Below are positions 26,154-62,477 of a DNA stretch of 64,000 nt, one piece after another. How positions within the stretch are numbered: position 1 is the first letter of the stretch; every line of letters begins with the position of its first letter. Below the pieces are notes generated by a model. The model saw only the letters and a list, made by a program, of their open reading frames with translations, was not told the origin of the DNA and ran no database searches. The stretch comes from Streptomyces sp. Q6 (GTDB lineage Bacteria > Actinomycetota > Actinomycetes > Streptomycetales > Streptomycetaceae): assembly GCF_036967205.1 (NCBI RefSeq), contig NZ_CP146022.1:7254001-7318000 (forward strand), in the 5' to 3' direction. The translations under genes were made by a program, and so were the position numbers.

Positions 26154-28721
26154 ATGACCGCCGAGGATCTGACGCGCCATGTGTCCGACGCGGCAGGGCT
26201 GCGCGCACTCATCGAGGAACATCCGCCCGCCTCACTCGCCGCCCCGGAGGCCCGGGCCGCGCTCGTCCGGGCCCGCGACGCGCTGCGGGACGCGGAGGAG
26301 AGCGCCCGGTCGCCGTTCGGGATCGGCCTCGTCGGTGAGATGAGCGCGGGCAAGTCGCTGCTGCTCGGCGTCCTCCTCGGGCTGCCCGAGCTTCTGCCCG
26401 TCGGCGACGAGGCCGTCACCGGCAACGTCACCGTCGTCCAGGCCAGGCCCGCTCCCCGGGGCGGCCGCTCGCGCCAGACGTCCGTCCAGGTCGAGTACTT
26501 CGACGAGGCGCAGGCCGTCGAGTACCTGCGGCACCTGCGCGACGCGCTCGCCGACCAGTCCGCGGCCGCCGGGCTCGACGCCGACCTCGTCGGCAAGCTC
26601 CGCGGCATCCACCTCGACACCCCGGACTGCACCCCGCTCCTCGCCTTCCGCGACACCCACCTCGGCGGCGCCATCGGCGCGTCGCTCTCCGGCGTCCTCG
26701 ACGAACTCGCCCTGGTCTCGGCTGCGTTGGACAACGCCCGCCGCTCGGGAAGGCGCCTGTTCGGCACCTCCGCCGTGCTCGACGCCCAGCTCGCCGGAGC
26801 CGCCGTCGTACTGCCGGGACCGGCCGGACTCAGCGCCCCCGACCCCCGGCTCGAAGGCGGCGGACTCAGCGCGGAGATGCTGCGCGCCACCATGCCGCTG
26901 GTGCGGCGCGTCGTCCGCGAGGTCGAGGTCGACCGCGGCGTGTGGGACGTCACCCCGTTCCCCGGCGGCGAACTCCGCCTGATCGACTTCCCGGGACTCA
27001 ACAGCGCCTTCAGCGCCGTACGCGACGGATACGTGTGCGGCGTCGAACTGCGCACCGTGCACACCGTCCTCATCCTGCTCAAGACCACCAGCGGCGCCAC
27101 CGACACGCCCGAGCGGCTGCGCCGGATGTGGCTCGCCGCCCAGCGCGACGACGGGCTCCAGGGCTCGGTGCTCGCCGCCGTCAGCCGATTCCACGAACTG
27201 CCGGTCACCGAAGACCTGTTGAAGCCCTGGCTCGACGACGCAGACCGGTCGACGAGCCGCGAACGGCTCCTGGAGCGGGTCCCCGTCCTCGGCGAGCTGC
27301 TCGCGGGCGCCGAGCGCCTCGTCGCCCAGGGCCGCGGCGACCGCATCGTGTTCACCTCCGCCATGCGCGCCCTGCACGTCTCCGGACAACTGCGTGAGGT
27401 CGGACCCGGCTTCGTCAGCTCCCGCCACCTGGGCACCCAGCTCCCGCTCGCCAACGCGCGGGCCGCGGTCTGGCGCACCGTCGGCGACCGCCTGACGGCC
27501 GCGGGCGTCGGCGGCGCGCTCGGCGGCATGCTCACCGCGTTCGCCGACGACGGGGGCATCGGCCGGCTGCGCGACGCGCTGCTCGACCACGTCGGCGAAC
27601 ACGGCGTCGCCCTGCGTCTCGCCCAGCTCGACGGGCGGCGCCGCGAGGCCCGCGAAGCGCTCCGCGCACTCTGCGACGCGCTGACCTCCGGCGGCGGCGC
27701 GAAGGCCGACGCCGACGCCCAGACCCGGGTCAGCACCCAGCTCTTCGCCCTCAACACCGTATGGCGCGACGTCCGCGCCCGCGCCGCGACCGAACTGCTC
27801 GACGCCCGCGGGCTCACCCTGCCCCGTGACTCCACCGACACCCAGGAGCGCACCCTCTTCGAAGAGCTGGAGGCCGACGTCGCCGACCGGGTGTTCGCCT
27901 GGGAGTCGTGGCGGCGCCTGCTCGACGCCGTCCGCGACGCCCACGTCGACCCGCGCAGCCTGCCCGACGACCGACCGCCGCCCCTCACCTCGGACGACCT
28001 GTTCGCCGAGTTCCGCGACACCTGCCGCGACATCCAGTCCCGCAACGGGCCCCGGCTCCTCGCCGCCCTGGAACAGTGGCTCGTCGGCCACCAGCACCGG
28101 CTCGTCGCCATCGCCGGTGAACTCGGCGCCATCCTGACCCCGGACGCCTTCGCCCGGCTGAAGTCCGCGACACCCGCCGAGACCGACCTCCTCCTCGACC
28201 AGCTGCGACGGGCCACCACGCTCGGCTGGATGCGCGACGGCGCGGAGAAGGCGGTCCGCGAACAGCTCCCCGACGACAGCGGCGACCTGCGACTGCGCGC
28301 CCGCTTCCCGCTGCGCCTCGGCCAGGTGCTGCCCTGGCACCCCGACAGCAACGCCGCCGCGTACGCCCGGCACCAGACCACCGTGGCCCGCTACCGCAGG
28401 GACATGGCCGCCATGGTCCTGCACGAGTCGCTGGCCCGGCTCGCCGACGCCCAGCGCGCCGTGAGCGCCTGCCTCGTCTCCCAGGTCCACGCCTTCCTCG
28501 ACGAGATGAGCCGGGGCGACGTCACCAAGGCCCTGGTGCGCGCCGTGGCCGGCGAGGGCGCGCAGGCCCGGAGCTCCACCGGGTTCGCCGAGGAACTGCG
28601 GGCCCTCGCCCGTACCTCCGTCTACTGGTGGGAGCGCGACACCGGGCCCCTGGCCGCCCGGCTCGGCGACACCGGGACCGCCACCAGCTTCGAGGCCGTG
28701 CTCCATGTCGGAGGTGCGTGA
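26154..28721 (+). CDS. Dynamin-like large GTPase
   Basis: 855 aa. A short helical N-terminus is followed by a GTPase domain: G1 is VGEMSAGKS near residue 60, a G2 Thr lies in VTGNVTVVQ, and G3 is LIDFPGLN near 278. No clear N/TKxD G4 motif is seen, as in many bacterial dynamin relatives. The remaining 500 residues are mostly helical and rich in Arg, Glu and Ala, without transmembrane helices, so a stalk-like region is likely. ATG 26154 is preceded by GGAGGGGGAGGAC and is preferred over ATG 26049, which has no good site. The TGA overlaps the ATG of the Hsp70-like gene. The pair resembles the SrfC/SrfB proteins of enterobacteria in size and order. Function is unknown. Confidence 0.78.
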   Translation: MTAEDLTRHVSDAAGLRALIEEHPPASLAAPEARAALVRARDALRDAEESARSPFGIGLVGEMSAGKSLLLGVLLGLPELLPVGDEAVTGNVTVVQARPAPRGGRSRQTSVQVEYFDEAQAVEYLRHLRDALADQSAAAGLDADLVGKLRGIHLDTPDCTPLLAFRDTHLGGAIGASLSGVLDELALVSAALDNARRSGRRLFGTSAVLDAQLAGAAVVLPGPAGLSAPDPRLEGGGLSAEMLRATMPLVRRVVREVEVDRGVWDVTPFPGGELRLIDFPGLNSAFSAVRDGYVCGVELRTVHTVLILLKTTSGATDTPERLRRMWLAAQRDDGLQGSVLAAVSRFHELPVTEDLLKPWLDDADRSTSRERLLERVPVLGELLAGAERLVAQGRGDRIVFTSAMRALHVSGQLREVGPGFVSSRHLGTQLPLANARAAVWRTVGDRLTAAGVGGALGGMLTAFADDGGIGRLRDALLDHVGEHGVALRLAQLDGRRREAREALRALCDALTSGGGAKADADAQTRVSTQLFALNTVWRDVRARAATELLDARGLTLPRDSTDTQERTLFEELEADVADRVFAWESWRRLLDAVRDAHVDPRSLPDDRPPPLTSDDLFAEFRDTCRDIQSRNGPRLLAALEQWLVGHQHRLVAIAGELGAILTPDAFARLKSATPAETDLLLDQLRRATTLGWMRDGAEKAVREQLPDDSGDLRLRARFPLRLGQVLPWHPDSNAAAYARHQTTVARYRRDMAAMVLHESLARLADAQRAVSACLVSQVHAFLDEMSRGDVTKALVRAVAGEGAQARSSTGFAEELRALARTSVYWWERDTGPLAARLGDTGTATSFEAVLHVGGA

Positions 28722-31700
28722 TGGCTCTTGACGTGAAGTTCGTCCTCGACGACACCGTGGGCGGCCCGCCGTCCCAGCCGCTGCGTCCCGACGCCAACGG
28801 CCGCTACCGGATGCCCGCCGTGCGGCTCACCCCGCACGGGGGCCCGGTGCGCGTCGAGAGTCTGCGCTGCCGCGTCGAGGCCGACGCCGACGGCGCCGCC
28901 CCCGTGGCGGAGTGGCGCACCCAGGTCGCCGACGCCTGGCAGGCCGTCGCCCCCGACGGGCAGCGTCTCGCCCTGCCCACCGACATCCACGCCTGGCCCG
29001 TCGCCCACCCCGCCGGGGCGGCCGACGGCATCGTGCGCCTGGTCTGCGACGTCGCGTACGCGCCCGTGCCCGAAACACCCCACGCCACGGCGGAGTTCGC
29101 GGCCGCCGGGCTCACCCCCGCCGACGCCGTCCAGCACGCCCACGCCCGCGTCACCCTCGCCTTCGCCCGGCCCGCCCTCGCCATGCCGGCCGCCCCGCCG
29201 CCACCCACCGCCGTACCGGACACCGACCGCTACCTGGGGCACGCCGCCATCGACTTCGGCACCTCCAACTCCACCGTCACGCTGTACGACGCGCTCATCC
29301 ACACCAGCCAGCCGTTCTCCGCCTCGCAGGTGCAGCGGCTGCGCACCGGGATCCTCACCCGGGTGCTCGCCGCGCCCTGCCCCCCGGTCGTCGCCGGGGA
29401 ATGGGAGTCCGTCCTCGCGCTGACCGCCGCCGAACTCGACGGGACCCTCGCCACGACCGCCCGCGGCGACCGGGCCGCGGCGATCGCCGGACACCTCGGC
29501 TCCGCGACCGACTCCGACGGCCTGTTCCGGTTCTGCCTGCTGCTCGAACAGCGGCTGCCCGACTGCTCGCGCACGCTCCGCCACGAACTGGCCCAGCGCC
29601 TCTACCGCTGCTACGACGACGCGTTCAGCGACCCGCCGCTCGAAGCCATGCGGCTGTTCCGCGTCGACCTCGGCGACGGCAGCCACGAAGTCCCCAGCCG
29701 CATCGAGGTACTGGGCACCGACCCGCTGGCGGTGCGCCTCGGCGACCCCGAGGGGCTGCCCGCGCCGCGCACCGCCACCTCCACGGGCACGCTCTCCGGC
29801 ATCCTCGGGCAGCAGCCGCTGGCCGCCTACCGAGGACTCAAGCTGCGGCTCGGCGACTCCCGGCCCCTGACGGACCTGCCCGGCACACCGCCGCCCACCC
29901 CGGACGACCTCATCCAGGCCGGACTCGGGTTCCTCGTGGACCGTGCCGACCGCTACATCCGGGCCCACGCGGGCGGCAGCCTCGGCTCGGGCACCCTCGA
30001 CGACGTCGCCCTCACCTACCCGACCGTCGCCACCCCCGACGTACGCCGCGCCCTGTACTCGCTGGTCTCCGAAGGACTCGGCATCAGCCGGGTCTCCATG
30101 CACTTCGACGAGGCCGTCGCCGCCGTCATGTTCTTCGTCATGCGGGACTTCGGCGGCGACCTGAACGTCGGCGTCGAGGCGTTCCGCGCCCGCTCCCGCC
30201 CCCACCCGGCCGAGGCCGCCACCTGGGTGCAGAACATCTTCATCCTCGACATCGGCGGCGGCACCACCGACATGGCCCTGGTCACCCTGACCCTGCGGGA
30301 CACCACACCCGCCGCCGTCCTGGAGCGGCCCGACGCCGACCGCCTCGGCCGGCACTACACGCTCGTCCCGACCGTGAGCGGCTCCAGCGGCCACACCCGG
30401 CTCGGCGGCGACCTGCTCACCCTGACCGTCTTCCACTGGCTCAAGGCGTCCCTCGCCGACCGGCTCATCGCCCGCCGCCCCGACGCCTACCGCACGGCGC
30501 TCCAGACGGAGCGGGCGCCGTACCTCGACGACAGCGGCACGTACCTGGCGGGGCGCCTCGCCCGGGACGTGCACGCCGACGACGCCGACGTGCGCGCCGT
30601 CGCCCGCAGGCTCGTGGAGGCCGTCGTCCCCACCCACTGGAAGGACGCCCCCGGCTCCGAACAGGAGCAGCGCCGCTGGCACTTCGAACAGCTGTGGAAA
30701 CTCGCCGACCAGGCCAAGATCCACCTCGGCGGATCCGACCAGAGCGGCCCGCAGCCGCCCTCCCCGACGGTCTTCGGCGAACAGGAACTGTCCGGCGTGC
30801 TCGGCAGCCTCGGCCACGGTGACCTCGTCGAGACCGTCGGCGCCGAGGGCCCGCTGAGCTTCGAGCTCGACGCCGCCACCTTCGGCAGGCTCATCCGCGG
30901 CCACCTGGCCAACGTCGTCGACCTGGCCACCGGCATGCTCACCCAGCGGCTGACCCAGCAGCAGAGCAACGAACCGCTGGACCGGATCGTGCTCACCGGC
31001 AAGACCAGCGCCATGCCGATGGTGCGCGAGGCACTCGTCCAGGGGCTCGGCCGGGACGGGAAACTGGACTGGGACCCGGCCACCATCGAGGTGGAGCGGG
31101 CCTACGCGAAGACCGCGACCTCGATCGGCGCCGCCTGGGCCGAACACGTACGCCAGACCGCGTTCGACCCCGAAGGGTCCGTCCCCGCACTCGAACAGGG
31201 CCGCACCGTCGTCCAGGTGGACGTCGACAACCTCTTCTTCGCGCTGCCCTGCGCCTTCATGCACGGCCTCCAGCTCGGCGCCGGAGACCTTCCGCTGTTC
31301 CACGCCAACGAGGAGCTGTACCACCTCGTCCACACCGAAGGGGTGCCGCCGGTCCTCGCCGTGCGCAGCGCGGAGCCGGCCCGCCTCACCGAGACCGTCA
31401 GCGTCGTACGGGTCCGCGAGGGCAACCAGGGCAACATCACCTGGGGCCAGTTCAAGTGCCCCGAGATCGGCAAGCAGCTGCCGGACATGCCCCCGGGCAG
31501 CGTCCTCGACCCGGCGATCTGGCCGCACCTGATCAACATCCGCTTCGAGGTCGCCGCCGATCTCGACGTGTTCGGCTACCTGTCGTACGGCACACCCCAC
31601 TACGTCGTCCCCTCCGGCGGCGAACCGTACGTGGACGTGTGGAGCCGCCTCCGCAAGGCCGGACTCCTCAAGGACGACCAGCCGCCCGCCGTCCTCCCGT

Positions 31701-32158
31701 TCTCCCTGTACGTGGGCCGCACCATCGCCGGCTCGGCGCAGGCGGCCGAGGGCACCGACCCCGTCTTCACCGGCGGCGCGCTCTTCGACCAGACCTTCCA
31801 CGACACGGCCGACGACCCGGGCCCCGGCCGCGCCGGACTGCTCAGCCGCCATCTGCCGCTGCCCCAGGGCAACGGCGAGTGGGAGTTCTCGGTCGCGGCC
31901 GAGGGCGAGGACGGCGAGCAGGTCATCACGGTCGGACGCCTGCCGAGCCCGCCCGCCGCACCAGGGATGCGCACCCGCTACCGCGCCACGCTCGACGAGG
32001 CCGGACTGCTGCGCGTGCACGCCGCCGAACTGCCGTACTGGCCCGCCCGCGACCTGCTGCACGTCCAGCGGGAACCGGGCCGGGTGCTCCGGCACCGGAT
32101 GACCGTGCAGGACAAGAACCGGGACGAGCAGGACGACCCGTTCGCGGGACTGCAATGA
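28721..32158 (+). CDS. Giant Hsp70/actin-fold ATPase (SrfB/DnaK-like)
   Basis: 1145 aa, far longer than DnaK (about 610). About 170 N-terminal residues form a separate beta-rich region. Next comes an actin/Hsp70 ATPase core: phosphate-1 AAIDFGTSNSTVTLYD (near 176), phosphate-2 IFILDIGGGTTDMALV (near 507) and an adenosine-type motif RIVLTGKTSAMPMVREAL (near 760). Large insertions separate these, and a C-terminal region of about 350 residues replaces the DnaK substrate domain. No chaperone partner (DnaJ, GrpE) is encoded nearby. ATG 28721 overlaps the stop of the GTPase gene and follows GGAGG; the stop overlaps the ATG of the third gene. The triad therefore probably forms one complex. Its substrate or role cannot be read from sequence. 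Confidence 0.78.
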   Translation: MALDVKFVLDDTVGGPPSQPLRPDANGRYRMPAVRLTPHGGPVRVESLRCRVEADADGAAPVAEWRTQVADAWQAVAPDGQRLALPTDIHAWPVAHPAGAADGIVRLVCDVAYAPVPETPHATAEFAAAGLTPADAVQHAHARVTLAFARPALAMPAAPPPPTAVPDTDRYLGHAAIDFGTSNSTVTLYDALIHTSQPFSASQVQRLRTGILTRVLAAPCPPVVAGEWESVLALTAAELDGTLATTARGDRAAAIAGHLGSATDSDGLFRFCLLLEQRLPDCSRTLRHELAQRLYRCYDDAFSDPPLEAMRLFRVDLGDGSHEVPSRIEVLGTDPLAVRLGDPEGLPAPRTATSTGTLSGILGQQPLAAYRGLKLRLGDSRPLTDLPGTPPPTPDDLIQAGLGFLVDRADRYIRAHAGGSLGSGTLDDVALTYPTVATPDVRRALYSLVSEGLGISRVSMHFDEAVAAVMFFVMRDFGGDLNVGVEAFRARSRPHPAEAATWVQNIFILDIGGGTTDMALVTLTLRDTTPAAVLERPDADRLGRHYTLVPTVSGSSGHTRLGGDLLTLTVFHWLKASLADRLIARRPDAYRTALQTERAPYLDDSGTYLAGRLARDVHADDADVRAVARRLVEAVVPTHWKDAPGSEQEQRRWHFEQLWKLADQAKIHLGGSDQSGPQPPSPTVFGEQELSGVLGSLGHGDLVETVGAEGPLSFELDAATFGRLIRGHLANVVDLATGMLTQRLTQQQSNEPLDRIVLTGKTSAMPMVREALVQGLGRDGKLDWDPATIEVERAYAKTATSIGAAWAEHVRQTAFDPEGSVPALEQGRTVVQVDVDNLFFALPCAFMHGLQLGAGDLPLFHANEELYHLVHTEGVPPVLAVRSAEPARLTETVSVVRVREGNQGNITWGQFKCPEIGKQLPDMPPGSVLDPAIWPHLINIRFEVAADLDVFGYLSYGTPHYVVPSGGEPYVDVWSRLRKAGLLKDDQPPAVLPFSLYVGRTIAGSAQAAEGTDPVFTGGALFDQTFHDTADDPGPGRAGLLSRHLPLPQGNGEWEFSVAAEGEDGEQVITVGRLPSPPAAPGMRTRYRATLDEAGLLRVHAAELPYWPARDLLHVQREPGRVLRHRMTVQDKNRDEQDDPFAGLQ

Positions 32159-33239
32159 GCACCGGGGCGGACCCCCAGGAGTGGCCCGCGCTCCAGCAAC
32201 TCCTCGCCCAGCAGCGGACGGTGGCCGGAGCCGTCACCGTCGCCGCCGTCGACGCGCTGCGCGCCACCCTGCGCGCCTGCCTCGCCGCGGCCCCGGGCGA
32301 CCCCGGCGTGCCCGCGGGCACCCGGCTCCTCGCCGACCTCGACGCGCTGCGCGCCGAACGGGGACGCGACGAGCCCGTCCTGCGGCTGCGCCCGGCGCCC
32401 GCCGAAGCCGCCCCCGCCACCGGCCTGGCCGCGCTCGCCGCCGAACTCGCCAAGTCCCCTGTCGTCGAGGACTACGCGCCCGGCGCGGCACCCCGGGCGC
32501 CGGCGGTCCCGGCGACGAGGACGGGCTGCGCCGCTGGTTCCATCTGACGCTGCTGCGGCTGCCCGCCCGGCACGCGGCGGGCTGGCGGGCCCGCGCCGCC
32601 CAGGCCGACCCGCCGACCGACGGCCCCTGGGACACCCTGCCCGGCCTGCGCGACGAAGAGCTCCTGCCGCCCGCCCCCGACGGCAGGAAGGGCCTGCGGG
32701 TCAGCCGCACCGAGGGCGCGGGACTGCGCGAACTCGGCGAACTCGCCATCGCCCTCGGGGCGTTGGACGAGAGCCTGTGCCACCTCCTCGACGGCCTGTG
32801 GACCGGCGGCTCCGCCCTGCTGTGCGAACCCGGCGTACGCAGTGTGTACGCCGCCGAACTCGCCCGCCGCGCCGACGCCGTGGACCGCGCGCCCACCGAG
32901 GGGCCCGAGCAGGTGCGCGCCCGCGCCCGCGCCGCCGAGGCCCTGTGCTCCGTCGTCCACCTCCCGCCCGGCGCCCCCGGCAGCTGGTGGCACCGCTACG
33001 CCGAGGACGCCGCCGGTATCGCGCTCGACGCGGCCCGCGCGGCGCGGGCCGCGGGACACGACGTCGAGGCGTTCCTGCCCGCCGGGCCCTACCGCGAGGC
33101 CCACCGCCACACCCGGGCCGACGACGTACGTCTGACGGCGGGCGGCCGGCCCGGCGAGACCCTCGCCTGCCTGCGCCTGTGGCTGCGGGTGGGCGACCAG
33201 GTCTACCCCGGCCGGGTCGTGTACCGGGGCGACGCATGA
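32155..33239 (+). pseudogene. Third gene of the GTPase/Hsp70-like operon, unknown, frameshifted
   Basis: Reconstructed length about 361 aa. The first part (from ATG 32155, overlapping the upstream stop as ATGA) is Ala/Arg-rich and helical (EWPALQQLLAQQRTVAGAVT). The second part, in another frame, reads DGLRRWFHLTLLRLPARHAA, LRELGELAIALGALDESLC, GSWWHRYAEDAAGIAL and ends LRLWLRVGDQVYPGRVVYRG. Adding one base in the CCCC/GGG run at 32491-32497 joins them. I recognise no domain. The conserved arrangement behind the GTPase and Hsp70-like genes suggests a subunit or adaptor of the same system, similar in position to SrfA, but the similarity is not shown. It converges on the beta-lactamase-family gene. 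Confidence 0.65.
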
Positions 33240-33255
33240 CGACCGCGACGGGCGA

Positions 33256-34401
33256 CTACCGCAGGGCGTCGGCCCCGTACGCCCAGAAGTCCCGCATGAT
33301 CCGCTGCGGCGCCGGACCGCTCATCGCGTACTGGGTGAGCAGCACCGTCACGGCCCCGGTCGACGGGATCAGGTGCGCGGCCGTGCCGGTGCCGCCGACC
33401 CAGCCGTAGCGGCCCGGGATCTGCCAGGGGTCGCGCGGCTCGACGTCGACGGAGCCGCCGAAGCCCCAGCCCTGCCCCTGGGTGAACAGCTCGCTCGCCC
33501 CGCGCTGCTGGTCGGTGAGGTGGTCGGTGGTCATCAGGCGGACCGAATCGGCGGACAGGAGCGTGCCGCCGCCGTCGAGCAGCATCCGGGCGAACGCCCA
33601 CCAGTCGTCCGCCGTGGAGACCAGCCCGCCCGCGCCGGAGGGGAACGCGGGCAGGCTGCTCCACTGGCCGTCCGGGGTGTCGACGCGCCGGGCGCCACCG
33701 TCGGCCGTGGGCACGTACGAGCTGGTGAAGCGGTCGCGCTGGGCGGCCGTCACTTCGAAGCCGGTGTCGCGCATGCCGAGCGGCTCGAAGATCCGCTCGG
33801 CGAAGAACTGCGGGAGCGGGGTGCCCGAGGCCCGCGCGATCAGGACGCCCTGGATGTCGGAGCAGGTGTTGTACAGGTAGGCCTCGCCCGGCTGGTGCAG
33901 CAGCGGGACGCCGGCCAGCGCCGCGAGCCAGGTGTCCGGCTCCGGCAGGCGCTGCGGCGCGTGCGGGTCCATCAGCGGGAACAGCGCCTGCATGGCGGGC
34001 AGCGAGAAGTCCGAGGAGAACCCCCAGCCCGCCCGGAACGTGAGCAGGTCCTCGACCGTGATCGGCCGGTTCGCGGGCACCACGTCCTCGACCGGCCCGG
34101 CCGGCTCGCGCACCACGTTCGGCGACGCCAGTTCGGGCAGCCAGTGCGCGATCGGTGCGTCGAGGGCGAGCCTGCCCTCCTCGATGAGCATCATCACGGC
34201 CGCGGCCGTGATCGGCTTGGTGAGGGAGGCGATGCGGAAGATCGAGTCGCGGGCCATCGGCGCGGTGCCCTCCGCGTCGGTGTGCCCGACGGCCGCCACC
34301 TCGACCCGGTCGCCGCGGGCCACCAGGCCCACGGCGCCCGGCACCGGCCCTTTCGTCACGTGCGGAGCCAGAACGTCGGTGAGCGTGGTGCTGTCGGTCA
34401 T
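33256..34401 (-). CDS. Serine hydrolase, beta-lactamase/penicillin-binding (class C-like) family
   Basis: 381 aa. The catalytic Ser-x-x-Lys is in FRIASLTKPI (near residue 60) and the Tyr-x-Asn element is in EAYLYNTCSDIQ (near 170). A His/Gly element YGWVGGTGTAAH lies near the end, as in esterase-like class C relatives. There is no signal peptide, so it is probably cytoplasmic and more likely an esterase or peptidase than an antibiotic resistance enzyme. ATG 34401 follows GGAGGG. It sits 59 bp downstream of the oxidoreductase-like gene on the same strand and could be the last gene of the lipid-peroxidation operon. Confidence 0.82.
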   Translation of the reverse strand: MTDSTTLTDVLAPHVTKGPVPGAVGLVARGDRVEVAAVGHTDAEGTAPMARDSIFRIASLTKPITAAAVMMLIEEGRLALDAPIAHWLPELASPNVVREPAGPVEDVVPANRPITVEDLLTFRAGWGFSSDFSLPAMQALFPLMDPHAPQRLPEPDTWLAALAGVPLLHQPGEAYLYNTCSDIQGVLIARASGTPLPQFFAERIFEPLGMRDTGFEVTAAQRDRFTSSYVPTADGGARRVDTPDGQWSSLPAFPSGAGGLVSTADDWWAFARMLLDGGGTLLSADSVRLMTTDHLTDQQRGASELFTQGQGWGFGGSVDVEPRDPWQIPGRYGWVGGTGTAAHLIPSTGAVTVLLTQYAMSGPAPQRIMRDFWAYGADALR

Positions 34402-34460
34402 CGGGGTCACCCTCCGGTCGGACGCGGATGCGTACGAGAAGGGTGACTCCCGAAGCGTGA

Positions 34461-35861
34461 TCAACTCATCGGTTCGCCGTCGGCGTCCCACAGCGTGTCG
34501 TGGGCGCGGTGCGCGTCCGTCAGACCGTTCGTGAAGAAGCGCTCGTAGTACTCGCCCTCCACGTGGTGGGCCTGGAGCCAGATCCCGGGTACGTGGATGG
34601 CGTCCGTGTGCGCGGGGAAGCGGCGGTGCGTCGACAGGATGTACGTACAGATGTCACGGGCGCAGTCGATGACGCGCTCGTCGTACTCGCCGGCCTCCGC
34701 GAGGTACCGCTGGCCGTAGTCCTCCTTGTAGATCCGGGTGAAGACGTCCTTGTCCCCGTACGTGCCGCCGGAGCCGAACTTCCCGTCGATGACCGCGTCC
34801 ACCGCGTCCGACATCGACGCGTGCGCGGGCGGGCAGGCCGCGGCGATCAGCGGCTCGCCGGTCGCCGGGTCGGCGATGCCCACCGGGTGCGAGCGCAGCG
34901 TCGCGTACTTCGGCAGCGGGACGTGCCAGCGCCACAGGTCGGCCGGGCGCCAACGCGGCGTGACGTACGTGAAGCCGAGCATGTTCCCGTACGTCTTCCT
35001 GAACTTCGGGTCGCCCAGGGCGATCTGCGGGTTGATGGAGGCGTGGATCCAGGCGCCGAGGCCCATCGCCTCCGCCGTCAGCATCACCGTCTGGAGGAGG
35101 AGGTCCGCCTCGATCTGGGTGCGCATCGGGCCGAGCGCGCCGAGCGGCAGTTTCAGCTCCTTGTTCAGGAAGCCGTTGTCGATCCACTTCTTCACGCCCG
35201 CGGGACGGTACAGGTTGCGGTCGTCCACGACGGTCGGCCGGGCGCCGTCCGGCTGCGTGAGCAGGTACATCAGGGCGTTGATGTACTGGTGCGAGAGGTC
35301 GACCACCGGGAACAGGACCGTGGTGCCCGGCAGGTTCGACAGGAAGCGGTTCGAGTCCAGGTAGGCCGGGAAGTCGCGCAGCCCCTCGGCGACGTCCAGG
35401 CGGTGGTCGAGGACCTTCACCTTCGCCTGCCGCGCCCGCTCCACCAGCGTCGCCGCCTCGAACGGCTCCTGGGGCGCGGGCGGCAGCTTGCGCAGGAAGT
35501 ACGTACCGCTGTCGTTGATGAGGAAGAAGTACGTGCCCTGCGCGTTGTCGGGGCTGCCCGCCGTGCGGCCCGTCATCGTCAGGTTGGGCTTGGCCATGAT
35601 GGGCTCGCCGTCGCGCGGGTCCTCGAACGGGCGGTCCGGCATGGTCAGTCCGGTGGAGCCGGTGACCGCGATCAGCACCGCCTCCTCCAGTTCGCTCAGC
35701 GGCTCGGCCCGGTGCGGCGAGCGGTAGCTCATCGATCCGGCCGACACCGAAGCGCCCCGGGAGACCCGGTGGGTACGGCGGCGCCAGACCGTCTTCAGGA
35801 ACGGGCGGGTGAGCAGGTCGTCCAGGCCCTGGTGGCCCGACGAACCGTCAACTGTCGGCAT
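34461..35861 (-). CDS. Unknown protein, possibly nitroreductase-fold
   Basis: 466 aa. I do not recognise this family with certainty. Two stretches resemble nitroreductase-type flavoproteins: LSELEEAVLIAVTGSTGL (near 60) and LLLQTVMLTAEAMGLGAWIH (near 265). The remainder includes aromatic and His-rich segments (PRWRPADLWRWHVPLPKY, GIWLQAHHVEGEYYERFF). There is no signal peptide or membrane helix. The gene overlaps the end of the catalase-like/dioxygenase gene by 14 bases, so the two are translated together and the product probably acts on, or supports, the product of that enzyme. A shorter start at 35732 is possible. A reductase role for a lipid hydroperoxide is only inferred. Confidence 0.6.
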   Translation of the reverse strand: MPTVDGSSGHQGLDDLLTRPFLKTVWRRRTHRVSRGASVSAGSMSYRSPHRAEPLSELEEAVLIAVTGSTGLTMPDRPFEDPRDGEPIMAKPNLTMTGRTAGSPDNAQGTYFFLINDSGTYFLRKLPPAPQEPFEAATLVERARQAKVKVLDHRLDVAEGLRDFPAYLDSNRFLSNLPGTTVLFPVVDLSHQYINALMYLLTQPDGARPTVVDDRNLYRPAGVKKWIDNGFLNKELKLPLGALGPMRTQIEADLLLQTVMLTAEAMGLGAWIHASINPQIALGDPKFRKTYGNMLGFTYVTPRWRPADLWRWHVPLPKYATLRSHPVGIADPATGEPLIAAACPPAHASMSDAVDAVIDGKFGSGGTYGDKDVFTRIYKEDYGQRYLAEAGEYDERVIDCARDICTYILSTHRRFPAHTDAIHVPGIWLQAHHVEGEYYERFFTNGLTDAHRAHDTLWDADGEPMS

Positions 35862-38724
35862 GGGAGGCCCCGTTCTCGGTCGGCGGCACCGGCCGCCACG
35901 GCGCGAACGCGCTCGCCTCGCGCGGCAGCAGACCCGCGAGGTCCGGGCAGTGCCGCAGCACGACGGACTTCATGCCGCCCTTCTCCACCCAGTCGATACC
36001 GAGCGGCGTGTAGATCTCCGGGCGGTAGTCGACGTTGAGGAAGCGGTCGCTCTGGAGCCGTCGCGTCGCCATCAGGATGAAGATGCGGAACGCCGTGTCG
36101 GAGAAGCCGAAGCCGGTCGGCGGGTTCTCCGCGAACAGGCCGACGACCGTGTCGATCTCGTCGACGGTCCGGTACACGTCCTTCAGGCGCGCCAGCGTCT
36201 CGGGCTCCCGCGTCAGGTCCTCGAAGCGGCGGATGCGCTCCTTGTGCAGCCCCGCGCGGAAGTCGTTGTAGCGCGGCACGCCACGGCGCCGGGTGCGCAC
36301 CAGGTCGACCACCGACAGGTCGATGATCTCGCCCTCGCGCTGGAAGCGCGTCAGCGACTTCGGGTAGTTGTGCAGCGTGATCGCGCCCGGGTGCGCGATG
36401 CCGAACGAGTAGAGCGTGTTGGCGAGGCCCGTCTTGCGGATCTGGCTCTCGGCGGCCGTGCCCTGGATGTCGTGGAAGCCGACGGTCTCCAGCCGCTGCC
36501 CGAAGTGGTGCTCGCGCAGCTCGTAGTCGTCGGGGATCAGCGGGTGCATCCGGTACACCGTGACGAAGTCCTCGGTGAGCGAGTACGGGGCGCCGTGGTG
36601 GTCGGGCAGCGTCTTCGGGATGCCGGTCAGCGAATGCGACTCCAGGAGCCACAGCCCCAGCTGGTTCAGCCAATTGCGCGGCGGGCCATCCCAGTTGGTG
36701 CGCAGGCCGACGTCGATCGCCTTCGTCGCGAGGATCGCCGGGGTCCACTCCACCGTATGGATCTTCGCGATGAGCGCCGACACGACGAGCCGCGCCGTGT
36801 GGTAGATCCGTTCCTCGCTCATCGACGGGTACTCGGCGCGCAGCGCGTCGCACACCGTGTTGTGCTCCCGCGCGAACAGCGTGTGCATCGCGCTGAGGCC
36901 CATCCACCAGTTGTCCTTGAACCCGGTGATCGGAATGCCCGTACGGTCGACGGGGATGTGGCCCGCGTCGAGCAACAGCCGTGCCCCGCCGTCGGGTTCG
37001 CGCAGCGACTTCGCCGTCCGCTCGTCGCCGCCGTACACCTCGGAGCCGTCCCACCAGTGCGAGGCGGTGTTCCCGAAGAGGATCGGCGGCCGGTCGCCGG
37101 GCGGTTCGACGCCTTCGTTCTCGGCGAACCGCATCACGTTCTCTTCCGGCCCGTTCGGGTGGTTGACCCACGTGCCGCCGCCGGGCGGCAGCGGTACCTC
37201 GACCGTCTTGCCGCCCTCGGGGTAGCGGCGGTGGTTGACCCAGTCGTGCACCTGGAACTGGATCCACGCGGCGGCCAGGACGTTGAGGGACGTCGCCGGG
37301 ACGAAGCTCTCCCGGGTGAGGAGCCGGCGGCTGACCGTCACCGGGTTCGGGGTGTCGAAGAGGTCGGGGCGGTACACGGGTGCGAGGTTGCGGCCGAACG
37401 CGGCCCCGACCGCGCCCATCTTCGGCGCCGACAGGTCGTTGTAGGTCCCGTCGTACGAGCGTGAGGTGCGCAGCCGCTCGTCCACCGGGACCGGCACGGA
37501 CTGCGTCCTCGGCGGCGCCTCGGGCACGTCCGTGTCGATGAGGTTGAGGCGGCGCAGCGCCTTCCGCAGGAACACGAGGTTGAGCAGGCTCGCGTCCAAC
37601 GGCAGCCGGTGCCAGGGGACATACCGGTTCAGGGCGCGGAAGGCGAGCCCGACCGGCACCCCGAGGACCCGGTTGCGCAGCGGTTCCTGCGAGGTGAACC
37701 GGGTGCCCTGGCGCTGCGCGGCGCTCGCCTCGTACGCGACCTTGCGGGCCCGGTTGAGGTTGCCGAGCGGCCTGAAGTCCTCCGAGGTGAACCAGGGGTT
37801 GAACGTCAGCTCCTCGACGCGGCGGGCCGCCGAGCGGGCCTCCGCCGTCGTGATGTCCTGCGCGGGGACGGTCAGCCGGGCCACCGGCAGCGGCGGCGAG
37901 ACCGCTTCCTTCCACTCGACGGAGCCGTCCTCGACGGGCGTGCGGCGCTCGTCGACGTACCGCTGCACGCACAGGTCGAAGGTGACGTCGCCACGGGACA
38001 GGCGCTGGGCGAGCTCGGTGTGCAGGAAGTTCGGGTCGCCGCGGTCGGGACGCGGCTCGGCGCCGCCGCCGACGGCCGGGCGCAGCAGGTAGCGGACCGG
38101 CCCCGCCTCGCCCCACAGGATCGCGCCGCGGCTCCAGTACGTCTCGCGGGCCAGGCTGTTGACGGTGTGCCGGGTCGCCGCCTGCACATTGCGCCGCATC
38201 CGGCTCGCGGTGCCGAGGCCCACGGCGAGGGGCAGTTTCACGAACAGGCCGACGGCCTTCTGCAACGGAGTGCGCGCGCCGGCCATGGCCTTGGCGAACG
38301 CCACGAACTCGCGGGCGTTGCGGGCGTGCGACACCGGGAACGAGGTCGCCAGCAGATCGTGGCTCTCGTCGCCGGTGACCTGCACCCGCACGGCCACCCC
38401 GTGCAGGTCGGGCGCGCCGTCGGGGCCGCGCACACCGCTCGCGTTGGAGAGCCGTACGGTCGCCGGGTACTCGGCGCCGGCCTTGGCGAAGCCGCTGGTC
38501 AGGGCGGGTGGCAGATCATCGAGGAAGCGGAGTCGGGCGTTCTCGACGCCGAGCGCCGCCTTCGCGTGGAAGGCGCGTTCGTAGCCCGCGGCGCCGCTCG
38601 CCCGGCGGTTCGCGACCTGGACCCGCATGATCTCGCCGGCGAGGCGCTGGAAGACGAGGCGCTCGGCCTCGGCGCTGCCGCCCTCGTACCGCTCGTACTG
38701 TGCGTACCGTTCGGTGTCGGCCAT
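35848..38724 (-). CDS. Catalase-like domain fused to animal-type haem peroxidase/alpha-dioxygenase-like domain
   Basis: 958 aa. Residues about 20-330 resemble catalase-like proteins (YPATVRLSNASG, PDLHGVAVRVQV, FRPLGNLNRARKVAYEAS), with RKVAY matching the RxxxY haem-ligand pattern. Residues about 400-950 belong to the haem-dependent dioxygenase/animal peroxidase group: distal His in IQFQVHDWVNH, SAMHTLFAREHNTVCDAL, and probable proximal His in TVYRMHPLIPD (near 725). Enzymes of this second type oxygenate fatty acids (alpha-dioxygenase, cyclooxygenase). Catalase-related domains fused to a fatty-acid oxygenase are known in allene-oxide-forming enzymes. The combination therefore suggests making a lipid hydroperoxide and converting it in one chain. 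A lipase gene is divergent. The ribosome-binding site before ATG 38724 is weak. Confidence 0.8.
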   Translation of the reverse strand: MADTERYAQYERYEGGSAEAERLVFQRLAGEIMRVQVANRRASGAAGYERAFHAKAALGVENARLRFLDDLPPALTSGFAKAGAEYPATVRLSNASGVRGPDGAPDLHGVAVRVQVTGDESHDLLATSFPVSHARNAREFVAFAKAMAGARTPLQKAVGLFVKLPLAVGLGTASRMRRNVQAATRHTVNSLARETYWSRGAILWGEAGPVRYLLRPAVGGGAEPRPDRGDPNFLHTELAQRLSRGDVTFDLCVQRYVDERRTPVEDGSVEWKEAVSPPLPVARLTVPAQDITTAEARSAARRVEELTFNPWFTSEDFRPLGNLNRARKVAYEASAAQRQGTRFTSQEPLRNRVLGVPVGLAFRALNRYVPWHRLPLDASLLNLVFLRKALRRLNLIDTDVPEAPPRTQSVPVPVDERLRTSRSYDGTYNDLSAPKMGAVGAAFGRNLAPVYRPDLFDTPNPVTVSRRLLTRESFVPATSLNVLAAAWIQFQVHDWVNHRRYPEGGKTVEVPLPPGGGTWVNHPNGPEENVMRFAENEGVEPPGDRPPILFGNTASHWWDGSEVYGGDERTAKSLREPDGGARLLLDAGHIPVDRTGIPITGFKDNWWMGLSAMHTLFAREHNTVCDALRAEYPSMSEERIYHTARLVVSALIAKIHTVEWTPAILATKAIDVGLRTNWDGPPRNWLNQLGLWLLESHSLTGIPKTLPDHHGAPYSLTEDFVTVYRMHPLIPDDYELREHHFGQRLETVGFHDIQGTAAESQIRKTGLANTLYSFGIAHPGAITLHNYPKSLTRFQREGEIIDLSVVDLVRTRRRGVPRYNDFRAGLHKERIRRFEDLTREPETLARLKDVYRTVDEIDTVVGLFAENPPTGFGFSDTAFRIFILMATRRLQSDRFLNVDYRPEIYTPLGIDWVEKGGMKSVVLRHCPDLAGLLPREASAFAPWRPVPPTENGASHADS

Positions 38725-39052
38725 CGTTGCCGTCCCTGTCGTGTGCCGTGCGTCAGGAGGTCGTACCGGAGGGGGCAGCGACGCTATCGGCGTCGTCCGA
38801 CGTCCCGCAGCGCCGTATCCCGCCATCTGCGACGACCGCCGAGCGACGCGAACTCCCTTACGAATAAGGGCGTTTGGCCCTGTCGGAGGCGCGGCCTCGC
38901 GGGCCCGCGACCGCCCCGCGACATCGTGCGCCGCCCCTCCCACACGCGTCCCTCGTGACCGCGCCCGGCGGCCCCCGCGGATGGCCGGTCAGCGACGGCT
39001 TGACGACACCCGGCCGCGGTGGTGTGCTCGGCAACCCGCCCAGGGAGGCGTC
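38725..39052. other. Divergent promoter region between fusion oxygenase and lipase genes
   Basis: About 330 bases without a gene, holding the promoters of both divergent genes. A short inverted repeat (CGACGC and GCGTCG, 38779-38784 and 38790-38795) is the only evident structure and could be an operator for both. Confidence 0.4.
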
Positions 39053-40309
39053 ATGCGCGACACCACCGTGCACGGACCCACGTTCGCCGAGCTGCGACCC
39101 CTGAAGGAGGCGACCTTCGTCGAGTCGGGCCGGGCGACCTTCCCCGTCTACCCCGACCTGGCCGAACGGCTCCTGGACGACAAGGCCCACCCCGACCCGG
39201 ACGGCGTCCTTCCGCACGTCATGGCGGTCTGCTCGGCCTACGCGTACGCGGGATTCGGGCAGGAGAGCGACGCCGGGACCGTCGCCATGATCGCCACACG
39301 GCTCGGCCTGGAGTCCAATCGGATCCGCGTCTTCGAGCAGCGCGTGGACGCCCTGTACGTCGCCTCGGCGGCCTACCTCATCCAGGACGAGGACCGCAGG
39401 ATCGCCATCCTGTGCTACCGCGGCACCCAGCCCGAGGACATCATCAGCATCCTCACCGACGCCGACGTACGCCCCGACACCCTCAGTGTCGACCTCGACG
39501 GCGTCCGCCACTCCGTCCACGCGGGCTTCTACCGCAACATGCGCGCCACCCGCTACCTCGTCCTCCAGGCCCTGGAACGCGCGGTGCGCGGCGAGTCCGT
39601 CGACCCGAAGGAGCGGGGCGTACGGGGCGGAGGACTCGAAGCGCTCTACATCACCGGGCACAGCCTCGGCGCGGCGATGGCGGCCCTGATGGCCGTCACC
39701 CTCGTGCACGAACCGCGCTACGCGCACCTCGCCCGCAGGCTGCGCGCCGTCTACACCTTCGGTCAACCCCTGATCGGCGGACCGGAGTTCGCCCGTGCCT
39801 GCGAGCGGGCCACCGACAGCAACGGCACCCATGTGCTGCGCGACCGCGTCCTGCGCTACATCCACGACCGTGACGTCGTCCCCGCGCTGCCGCCCCGGCC
39901 GGTCGGCCCGTACGCCCCGTTCGGCCGCGAGTTCCACTACCGCAGGCCGCGCCGGGGCCTGGACGCGGTGTTCGCGGCGGCGGCCGACACGGCGGCGGAG
40001 GCCGTGGCCCTCCCCGGTGACGTGCTCGGCGGCGCGAACCCGCTCGACCGGCTGCGCCGCGTCGCGGCCCTCCCGGCCCGGGTCCGCCAGGAGGGCTGGG
40101 TGGAGCGCCACGACCCGGCGCGGCCCTACGCCCAGATGGACAGCCTCGCCGGACTCGCGGTGGTGGCCCCGCTCGCCTTCTTCGCGACGCGCCTGGCCCT
40201 GACCCGCTCGATCCCGTTCCGCTACTCCTTCGAGGACCACGGGCCGGCGCACTACGTCAACACGCTCGCTCCGCAGGGCGTGCTGAGCGAGTACGGGGAC
40301 GTCAGGTAG
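39053..40309 (+). CDS. Class 3 lipase family protein
   Basis: 418 aa. The nucleophile elbow is ALYITGHSLGAAMAAL (Ser near residue 203), preceded by AILCYRGTQPEDI, which supplies the oxyanion region of class 3 lipases. Catalytic Asp is probably in YIHDRDVVPALPP and the His in SFEDHGPAHYVN near the end. A hydrophobic segment (LAGLAVVAPLAFFATRLAL) lies just before that His, so membrane association is likely; no signal peptide is seen. The enzyme would release fatty acids from acylglycerols or phospholipids. Its divergent neighbour is a fatty-acid-oxygenase-like fusion, suggesting that the lipase supplies substrate. ATG 39053 follows AGGGAGG. Confidence 0.85.
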   Translation: MRDTTVHGPTFAELRPLKEATFVESGRATFPVYPDLAERLLDDKAHPDPDGVLPHVMAVCSAYAYAGFGQESDAGTVAMIATRLGLESNRIRVFEQRVDALYVASAAYLIQDEDRRIAILCYRGTQPEDIISILTDADVRPDTLSVDLDGVRHSVHAGFYRNMRATRYLVLQALERAVRGESVDPKERGVRGGGLEALYITGHSLGAAMAALMAVTLVHEPRYAHLARRLRAVYTFGQPLIGGPEFARACERATDSNGTHVLRDRVLRYIHDRDVVPALPPRPVGPYAPFGREFHYRRPRRGLDAVFAAAADTAAEAVALPGDVLGGANPLDRLRRVAALPARVRQEGWVERHDPARPYAQMDSLAGLAVVAPLAFFATRLALTRSIPFRYSFEDHGPAHYVNTLAPQGVLSEYGDVR

Positions 40310-62229: not shown

Positions 62230-62477
62230 ACGGTGTGTCCCTCCTGGGGGGCGAGGCCGCCGGGCGTGGTGGCCGCCGTACAGCATCCACGATGACACGA
62301 GTCATCGGAGTATCTGTCCCGTACCGCGGAACGCCGCTGATCCGACCGCGCGCCGCGGGCTCCCGGGAACCTCAGCCTTCCCGGTGGTGGACCCAATCCG
62401 CCCTGGTAGCAGTAGAGTTGACGTGGTAGCTTCGCCCGAAGTTCCGACGGGTGGGACCGACGCACGGGGGATGGTCG
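62230..62477. other. Divergent region before the VMAP gene
   Basis: About 250 bases holding the promoters of the leftward carboxylesterase and rightward VMAP gene. It contains the inverted repeat at 62291-62306. A TTGACG hexamer at 62418-62423 could be a -35 element. Confidence 0.4.
62291..62306. promoter_or_regulatory. Inverted repeat GATGAC-ACGA-GTCATC, candidate operator
   Basis: Six-base perfect arms with a four-base spacer, 62 bp upstream of the carboxylesterase start, in the shape expected for a GntR/TetR-type dimer site. No regulator gene is adjacent. Confidence 0.45.

What the first reader, a model, noticed from the sequence alone, without database searches (positions are those of the whole stretch)
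26154..33239. Dynamin-like GTPase / giant Hsp70-like ATPase / unknown protein operon
Three co-translated genes encode an 855-aa dynamin-like GTPase, an 1145-aa Hsp70/actin-fold ATPase almost twice the size of DnaK, and a third protein without a recognised domain. Stops and starts overlap (TGATG and ATGA), so they probably form one machine. No DnaJ, GrpE or ESX-type gene is nearby. The order and sizes recall the SrfC/SrfB/SrfA proteins of enterobacteria, whose mechanism is also poorly known. An actinobacterial version linking membrane remodelling to an Hsp70-like ATPase could be an undescribed effector, defence or envelope system.
Basis: partly seen in the sequence, partly recalled or inferred. 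Interest (0 to 1): 0.8.

Follow-up and report, generated by a model that had tools for sequence, protein, structure and literature searches.

The report
SrfB/SrfC-like dynamin-Hsp70 operon in Streptomyces
A rare, conserved block of three bacterial genes, a membrane-type GTPase, a giant Hsp70-like ATPase and an unknown partner, is shared by distant actinobacteria, is related in two of its parts to the poorly understood SrfABC proteins of Proteobacteria, and in some Streptomyces is joined to a kinase-phosphatase set like one known from anti-virus defence.

Summary
Genes 1 and 2 are as described: an 855-aa dynamin-like GTPase and an 1145-aa protein with Hsp70/actin-type ATPase motifs, overlapping by 1 bp. 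Gene 3 overlaps gene 2 by 4 bp, but its frame stops after 130 codons (32547); the conserved C-terminal part lies in another frame to 33239. Five of five fetched Streptomyces orthologues are open throughout, so here it is a recent frameshift or a sequence error. Gene order is kept in 6 of 6 Streptomyces loci and, at 22-31% identity, in 5 loci of another family (gene 3 recognised in 4 of 5), where a DUF4407 membrane protein lies upstream. Profile comparison relates gene 2 to SrfB (E 1e-12, 349 columns) and, less specifically, gene 1 to SrfC (E 1e-5, GTPase core). Gene 3 is not detectably SrfA, and the order differs. In four Streptomyces relatives an ATGA-coupled kinase gene follows; three of them also carry PP2C-like and TerY genes, together resembling TerY-P. 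The window has none of these. Best reading: a cytosolic membrane-remodelling machine under chaperone control, used in stress or conflict; function unproved. New variant of a known kind.

The parts
26154..28721 (+). Gene 1: 855-aa dynamin-like GTPase (G1 GEMSAGKS, switch I TGNVT, G3 DFPG; G4 degenerate)
   Evidence: Dynamin_N 32 bits vs cut-off 27; profile of 11 homologues matches bacterial dynamin-like protein 2j68, E 8.7e-4; G61, K67, S68, T89, T93, D278, P280, G281 invariant in 11 of 11 aligned
28721..32158 (+). Gene 2: 1145-aa Hsp70/actin-type ATPase related to SrfB
   Evidence: SrfB E 1.7e-4, below cut-off; profile vs DnaK 2v7y E 4.4e-7; hhalign vs SrfB E 1.1e-12 over 349 columns
32155..32547 (+). 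Gene 3, first piece: N-terminal 130 codons, frame ends at a stop
32406..33239 (+). Gene 3, second piece in another frame: conserved C-terminal part (similarity to relatives begins near 32493)
   Evidence: 74% identity to L002; dN/dS 0.49, like genes 1 and 2
28721..28721 (+). Gene 1/gene 2 overlap (TGATG)
32155..32158 (+). Gene 2/gene 3 overlap (ATGA)

Best explanation
A three-protein, nucleotide-driven machine of the cytosolic side of the membrane. Gene 1 is a bacterial dynamin-like protein that would assemble on membrane and remodel or seal it on GTP hydrolysis. Gene 2, a very large Hsp70-fold ATPase related to SrfB, would drive assembly or disassembly of the gene 1 polymer (in the way Hsc70 takes clathrin coats apart), and gene 3 would be the adaptor between them. 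Lineages attach different parts: a DUF4407 membrane protein (and in some a cyclase-like protein) in one actinomycete family, a kinase coupled to the operon plus PP2C-like and TerY genes in some Streptomyces, vWA and ABC-transporter genes beside srfBC in some Proteobacteria. I take its job to be an inducible response to membrane damage or invasion. Shown here: the gene set, its conservation, the GTPase and ATPase motifs, the SrfB/SrfC relation, the linked parts. Inferred: membrane action, chaperone control, the adaptor role, and any role in defence. In this strain the copy has no kinase switch beside it and its third gene is frame-broken, so it may not be fully working.
For: Order, strand and 1-4 bp overlaps kept in 6 of 6 Streptomyces loci; genes 1 and 2 adjacent in 5 of 5 loci of another family, gene 3 recognised in 4 of 5, at 22-31% identity. 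The Streptomyces-only profiles find the G094 proteins at E 2.4e-84 (gene 2) and 2.6e-28 (gene 1). Trees: genes 1 and 3 share 6 of 6 splits, genes 1 and 2 share 5 of 7, the differences lying among L003-L006. GTPase residues invariant in 11 of 11; ATPase residues D178, G180, D510, G512-T515, D517, G760 in 10 of 10. Gene 2-SrfB hhalign E 1.1e-12, 349 columns, against 0.067 for reversed SrfB and 0.45-0.91 for five shuffles; gene 1-SrfC E 1.2e-5. DUF4407 upstream in 5 of 5 loci of the other family. ATGA-coupled kinase-like gene in 4 of 4 loci of the second Streptomyces site; PP2C-like and TerY genes beside it in the 3 with enough flank. vWA genes beside 2 of 4 proteobacterial srf operons.
Against: None of the three proteins has a strong transmembrane segment (highest 19-residue mean 1.59), no membrane-binding part was shown, gene 1 was not modelled, and the gene 2 model is unusable (pLDDT 51.9, pTM 0.39). 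G4 is degenerate. No DnaJ or GrpE was met among the neighbours scanned with Pfam, which are only some of them. The triad has no PADLOC match below E 0.1; the nearest window neighbours scanned are metabolic genes. The TerY-P-like genes are not in the 64-kb window or L002, and kinase and PP2C have no tblastn match in the six other-family loci, so they are an optional addition; the PP2C-like gene is not seen by Pfam (an L004 frame that holds it) nor among solved structures, and the kinase matches solved kinases only at E 0.16 or worse. The correspondence of gene 3 between the two families rests on place, alignment (22-29% identity) and a profile that already held L019; a Streptomyces-only profile was not tested. 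The only function in papers I saw is cytotoxicity of Xenorhabdus SrfABC (PMC6950479).
Confidence: 0.45

Rival explanations
1. A growth accessory for hyphal membrane or septum work: the same machine, but used in growth or sporulation, not in conflict.
For: Bacterial dynamin-like proteins act on membranes (established knowledge); the gene divergent from the operon in L004 has a Septum_form domain.
Against: Patchy: gene 2 in 2 of 25 genomes of the genus, 5 of 35 in the other family, own only among 80 of the phylum (limited depth); a general growth function should be commoner. TerY-P-like neighbours in relatives point to stress or defence.
Confidence: 0.25
2. The window's copy is a decaying remnant: gene 3 is frameshifted and the kinase switch is absent, so it does nothing in this strain.
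For: Frame broken; no kinase, PP2C or TerY in the window.
Against: The part after the break still has dN/dS 0.49, like genes 1 and 2 (0.48, 0.51), so the break is recent or a sequence error; genes 1 and 2 are open. L002, at the same site, also has no kinase beside it but an open gene 3.
Confidence: 0.3
3. A secreted or injected SrfABC-type toxin complex.
For: Gene 2 and gene 1 are related to SrfB and SrfC; Xenorhabdus SrfABC is reported cytotoxic (PMC6950479: abstract passage and introduction seen).
Against: SrfA is not found; no secretion genes were recognised by eye among the genes called around the triad, though none were searched for; two large cytosolic NTPases are unlikely cargo. The abstract passage speaks of SrfABC made in E. 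coli cytoplasm.
Confidence: 0.05
4. Three unrelated genes that happen to be neighbours.
For: No shared domain.
Against: Conserved order, overlaps and largely congruent trees across two families.
Confidence: 0.01

Closest known systems
SrfABC (SrfB PF07520, SrfC PF10139, SrfA NF040486) of Proteobacteria
   Same: Adjacent genes for an SrfB-related Hsp70-fold ATPase and a dynamin-type GTPase; similar sizes; a third protein; vWA genes nearby in 2 of 4 srf loci read.
   Different: Order GTPase-ATPase-third instead of A-B-C; gene 3 is not detectably SrfA and has no transmembrane segment; SrfC similarity limited to the GTPase core; Pfam SrfB cut-off not reached by any of 8 proteins scanned.
Bacterial dynamin-like proteins (BDLP 2j68, pair 5owv)
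   Same: G1, switch I and DxPG motifs; profile matches E 8.7e-4 and 0.0047.
   Different: Only the N-terminal GTPase core matches; degenerate G4; partnered with an Hsp70-like ATPase and not with a second dynamin.
Hsp70/DnaK
   Same: ATPase motifs of the actin/Hsp70 fold; DnaK match E 4.4e-7.
   Different: Almost twice the size, own N- and C-terminal regions; a longer and stronger profile match to SrfB than to the one Hsp70 (HscC, a single sequence) compared.
TerY-P modules (TerY vWA, PP2C, Ser/Thr kinase; PMC11090510, passages seen)
   Same: PADLOC TerY, PP2C and STK_OB models match genes beside the triad in L004-L006.
   Different: The kinase gene is coupled to the triad operon and matches only positions 2-297 of 562 of STK_OB, so the OB part is missing; nothing of it in the window.
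GTPase-centred conflict systems with Hsp70 (DO-GTPase/GAP1; PMC7159879, passages seen)
   Same: Pairing of a GTPase with an Hsp70 and vWA/kinase/PP2C themes; a DO-GTPase2-like gene in L004-L006 (26.6 bits, cut-off 27).
   Different: Gene 1 is dynamin-type, not DO-GTPase; GAP1 was not searched for. The paper's main text holds neither 'dynamin' nor 'Srf'.

Membership tests
SrfABC | SrfB homologue | tested here: met
   hhalign vs 4 environmental SrfB: prob 97.8, E 1.1e-12, 349 columns; reversed SrfB E 0.067, 5 of 5 shuffles E 0.45-0.91.
SrfABC | Pfam SrfB score above the curated cut-off | tested here: not met
   0 of 8 gene 2 proteins scanned reach 27.1 bits; best L002 26.8; 7 of 8 listed at all; L030 and L031 not scanned. 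In a genome search the model found only the own copy (1 of 21) and missed G001, which has one.
SrfABC | SrfC homologue | tested here: inconclusive
   hhalign E 1.2e-5 but only 93 columns of the GTPase core; other-family sequences alone 0.0021; Pfam Virul_Fac seen only in L004, E 0.036.
SrfABC | SrfA homologue | tested here: not met
   hhalign E 0.57; NF040486 matches 3 of 3 proteobacterial proteins given, one below its cut-off, and 0 of 6 gene 3 proteins.
SrfABC | Order srfA-srfB-srfC | tested here: not met
   Here GTPase, ATPase, third; Proteobacteria A-B-C.
Dynamin-like GTPase | Dynamin-type G1, switch I and G3 | tested here: met
   Dynamin_N above cut-off in 4 of 5 proteins scanned; key residues invariant in 11 of 11, but the glycine before the G1 lysine is replaced in L019 and L032.
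Dynamin-like GTPase | G4 (T/N)KxD | tested here: not met
   SRFH in the window; N/T/S-x-F-D/E in the other family (read).
Dynamin-like GTPase | Helical stalk and membrane binding | not tested
Hsp70 | Phosphate-1, phosphate-2 and adenosine motifs | tested here: met
   (motif names recalled).
Hsp70 | Substrate-binding domain after the ATPase | tested here: inconclusive
   Model too poor.
TerY-P | TerY, PP2C and kinase together | tested here: not met
   Not in the window or L002 (the rest of the genome was not searched); beside the triad in L004-L006.
Anti-phage defence | Protection in an infection assay | not testable with these tools
   -

The most novel reading that the evidence does not exclude
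The SrfB-SrfC pair, filed as a virulence factor, is the core of a widespread intracellular stress or anti-phage machine in which an Hsp70-fold ATPase works a dynamin on the cell's own membrane, switched by kinase/phosphatase/vWA modules; the actinobacterial form shows it without SrfA and, in some strains, joined to a TerY-P-like module.
Probability: 0.3. Interest if true: 0.85.

Novelty: new variant of a known kind. Interest (0 to 1): 0.6.

Why it matters
SrfABC has a virulence label and no settled mechanism in the papers I saw. The actinobacterial proteins link SrfB to Hsp70 (gene 2 matches both strongly, while SrfB and HscC match each other only at E 0.004) and put a dynamin-type GTPase beside it in Streptomyces, joined in some to a kinase/PP2C/TerY set whose relatives are described as anti-phage systems (PMC11090510, passages). 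That makes a concrete, testable model: Hsp70-type control of a bacterial dynamin. Harmless Streptomyces can serve for the test.

Tried and rejected
Plasmid and phage carriage: no tblastn match of gene 2 at E 1e-3 in 72,556 plasmid records or 1e-2 in 50,697 phage records; the L002 protein at limit 10 gave 2 weak plasmid matches, E 3 (an Hsp70-family protein) and E 8.

DnaK with insertions: rejected; the SrfB match is longer and stronger than the match to HscC, though HscC was a single sequence.

Gene 3 as SrfA, or as the gene after srfC: hhalign E 0.57 and 0.44. In L030 the gene at the gene 3 place shows no similarity to gene 3 (full-sequence E 1, best stretch 0.059, in a search of that one sequence). 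Weak addiction-module matches of gene 3, all below cut-off (E 0.0026, 0.028, 0.076), were taken as chance.

Programmed frameshift in gene 3: not favoured, as 5 of 5 orthologues need none.

Class search: 5 of 60 genomes matched, but 3 (G051, G073, G091) only over the Hsp70 segment 719-787 at E 3.6e-4 to 5.7e-4; I dropped these and count 2 of 60. One search scored at most 9 candidates per genome, so its 1 of 80 may miss some.

Empty-site test: not possible; the neighbouring gene 34461-35861 was itself found in 1 of 25 genomes of the genus (own).

Structures: gene 2 model unusable. Gene 3 model (L002 protein) moderate, pLDDT 71.4, pTM 0.63, mostly helical with a small C-terminal beta part; no fold search ran. 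A first dN/dS run of the gene 3 end used a wrong frame and was redone. A Pfam scan of six L004 frames behind gene 3 gave no match; one of them holds the PP2C-like stretch.

Literature: searches. Listed were 20 of 1,775, 40 of 50, 37 of 37, 20 of 248, 15 of 29 and 2 of 2 papers; in these listings (titles and starts of abstracts) I saw no description of this actinobacterial operon. PMC12857086, which holds both SrfB and Streptomyces, was not opened. Passages of PMC2875224 gave nothing on Srf.
Full report
Setting. The window is bases 7254001-7318000 of an 8,566,166-base contig of a two-contig genome. The related loci found by pattern scan are all Streptomyces, so the strain is taken to be one. 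The operon lies in the outer right part of that contig.

Observation. Gene 1 (26154-28721) codes for 855 aa and gene 2 (28721-32158) for 1145 aa. Stop and start share one base between genes 1 and 2, and ATGA joins genes 2 and 3. Gene 3 does not run to 33239 in one frame: from ATG 32155 it stops at 32547, and the conserved rest is in another frame. Compared with L002 the frame changes between about 32490 and 32515. The 5 other Streptomyces orthologues fetched are open throughout, 361 to 566 aa, with a variable proline- and glycine-rich linker in the longer ones. The part behind the break has dN/dS 0.49 against L002, genes 1 and 2 have 0.48 and 0.51, so the break is recent or a sequence error.

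What the proteins are. Gene 1 has Dynamin_N above its cut-off; a profile of 11 homologues finds the bacterial dynamin-like protein 2j68 (E 8.7e-4) and the pair 5owv (E 0.0047). G61, K67 and S68 of G1, T89/T93 of switch I and D278/P280/G281 of G3 are invariant in 11 of 11; G4 is degenerate. Gene 2 carries the phosphate-1, phosphate-2 and adenosine motifs of the Hsp70/actin fold, kept in 10 of 10, and its profile matches DnaK (2v7y, E 4.4e-7). Pfam gives SrfB below its cut-off (window E 1.7e-4; L002 1.7e-6). Gene 3 matches no family above a cut-off and no solved structure at E 1. None of the three has a clear transmembrane segment. The model of gene 2 was too poor to use; the model of the L002 gene 3 protein is moderate and mostly helical, and could not be compared with known folds.

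Conservation. A scan of genome contigs (84,980 species by its description) with exact peptide patterns, which finds close relatives only, gave 5 loci, all Streptomyces; all hold the three genes in the same order. By their neighbours the window and L002 share one site, L003-L006 another. Gene 2 was found in 2 of 41 relatives, both among the 25 of the genus; the second, G001, is probably the same contig as L003, of equal length. In the class, homologues over more than the Hsp70 segment were in 2 of 60, one of them, G094, in another family. In that family 5 of 35 genomes have it. Their loci (L019, L029, L030, L031, L032 with L033) hold genes 1 and 2 side by side in the same order, and a gene 3-like protein in 4 of 5. 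For L032/L033, two contigs of one genome, gene 2 is cut by the contig ends. Gene 1 and gene 2 of G094 are found by Streptomyces-only profiles at E 2.6e-28 and 2.4e-84. The gene 3 link between the families is weaker: place, alignment at 22-29% identity and, for L029, L031 and L033, a profile that already included L019 (E 1e-19 to 5e-26). Each of the five has a DUF4407 membrane protein upstream of gene 1; in L031 the one scanned is the second gene upstream, the first looks alike by eye and was not scanned. Three of them (L029, L031, L032) also keep a divergent gene similar to nucleotide cyclases (E 0.0055 to 1yk9). The own genome and 7 others of the genus have no DUF4407 at E 1e-5 (0 of 8). In the phylum sample only the own genome matched (1 of 80, limited depth). 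Trees largely agree: 6 of 6 splits for genes 1 and 3, 5 of 7 for genes 1 and 2.

Relation to SrfABC. To test the recalled likeness I took srf regions of four environmental Proteobacteria, aligned their proteins and compared them by hhalign. Gene 2 against SrfB: probability 97.8, E 1.1e-12, 349 columns; reversed SrfB 0.067, five shuffles 0.45 to 0.91. With only the Streptomyces or only the other-family sequences E is 1.1e-10 and 3.5e-9. Gene 2 also matches the Hsp70 HscC (E 1.4e-10, 182 columns), while SrfB and HscC match at 0.0042 only; so gene 2 bridges SrfB and Hsp70. Gene 1 against SrfC: probability 81, E 1.2e-5, 93 columns of the GTPase core; Streptomyces sequences alone give 3.4e-6, the other family alone only 0.0021, shuffles 0.13 to 0.99; this could be general dynamin likeness. 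Gene 3 against SrfA: E 0.57, and the NCBIfam SrfA model matches the 3 proteobacterial proteins given (one below its cut-off) but none of 6 gene 3 proteins. The order also differs. I therefore call the operon SrfB/SrfC-related, not a member of SrfABC.

Linked parts in relatives. In L003-L006 a 317-aa kinase-like gene starts in the ATGA that ends gene 3, in 4 of 4 loci; PADLOC calls it STK_OB (E 8.8e-49 in L005, 4.5e-48 in L006; only the first half of that model is matched). Facing it are a PP2C-like gene (L004 and L005 by PADLOC, L006 by similarity) and TerY (L004 and L005 by PADLOC; the L006 gene begins with the same residues). L003 ends before these. Against this, Pfam did not see the PP2C-like stretch, solved structures gave nothing for it and only weak kinase matches, E 0.16 or worse, for the kinase. 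An M48 peptidase and a DO-GTPase2-like gene (26.6 bits, cut-off 27, in L004) follow in L004-L006. The passages seen of PMC11090510 describe TerY-P as TerY, PP2C and kinase, and say that forms with an OB-fold kinase were shown to work as stand-alone anti-phage systems. The window and L002 have none of these three (the rest of the genome was not searched), and kinase and PP2C have no match in the other-family loci, so I cannot say whether they were gained or lost. Two of the four proteobacterial srf loci have vWA, ABC-transporter and SUMF1 genes beside them; passages of PMC3608642 describe srfBC near a kinase and other T6SS control genes.

Mechanism. The best-supported picture is a dynamin-like membrane GTPase worked by an SrfB/Hsp70-type ATPase, with gene 3 as adaptor and lineage-specific switches or anchors. 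The comparison with Hsc70 and clathrin coats is an analogy from general knowledge. Patchy spread and kinase/PP2C/TerY linkage favour an inner stress or defence role over a toxin, but PADLOC does not list the triad and nothing here shows function.

Verdict. Real, conserved and interesting; two of three parts of the Srf idea hold, one of them weakly, and the third does not; the window's own third gene is frame-broken. New variant of a known kind.

Noticed in passing
window 62451-63956 (+): A protein with VMAP-C, VMAP-M0 and EAD2 domains (Pfam), i.e. the VMAP part of a MoxR-vWA conflict system, about 29 kb downstream of the operon.
   Followed up: no
window 33256-40309: Serine hydrolase (Beta-lactamase family), a 466-aa protein without Pfam match, an animal-haem-peroxidase protein with a sub-threshold catalase match in front, and a class 3 lipase; L002 has genes with matching starts in the same order. 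The 466-aa gene was found in 1 of 25 genomes of the genus (own). Perhaps a lipid-oxidation set.
   Followed up: partly
L029 15734-17435, L031 15565-17212, L032 5766-8015: A cyclase-like gene divergent from the DUF4407-dynamin-Hsp70 operon, and next to it another gene of about 270 aa, alike by eye in all three, without a Pfam match above cut-off in L029.
   Followed up: partly
L043 44819-50000, L044 1-3144 and L046 14719-21021: Two proteobacterial srf operons on plasmids are followed by a 311-353 aa gene, a vWA protein, an ABC ATPase, a permease and a SUMF1-type protein.
   Followed up: no
L045 13932-16179: Genes annotated as HscC (Hsp70) and DnaJ lie shortly behind srfC in Rahnella victoriana.
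   Followed up: no
L004 3217-5508: A 763-aa gene with an N-terminal HTH (PADLOC capH-like) and, by eye, a P-loop NTPase and membrane part, between the serine dehydratase-like gene and the triad; not among the genes called at that place in L003, L005 or L006.
   Followed up: no
gene 3 orthologues in L003-L006: The linker between the N- and C-terminal parts is made of proline/glycine/glutamine-rich repeats and varies in length from strain to strain.
   Followed up: no
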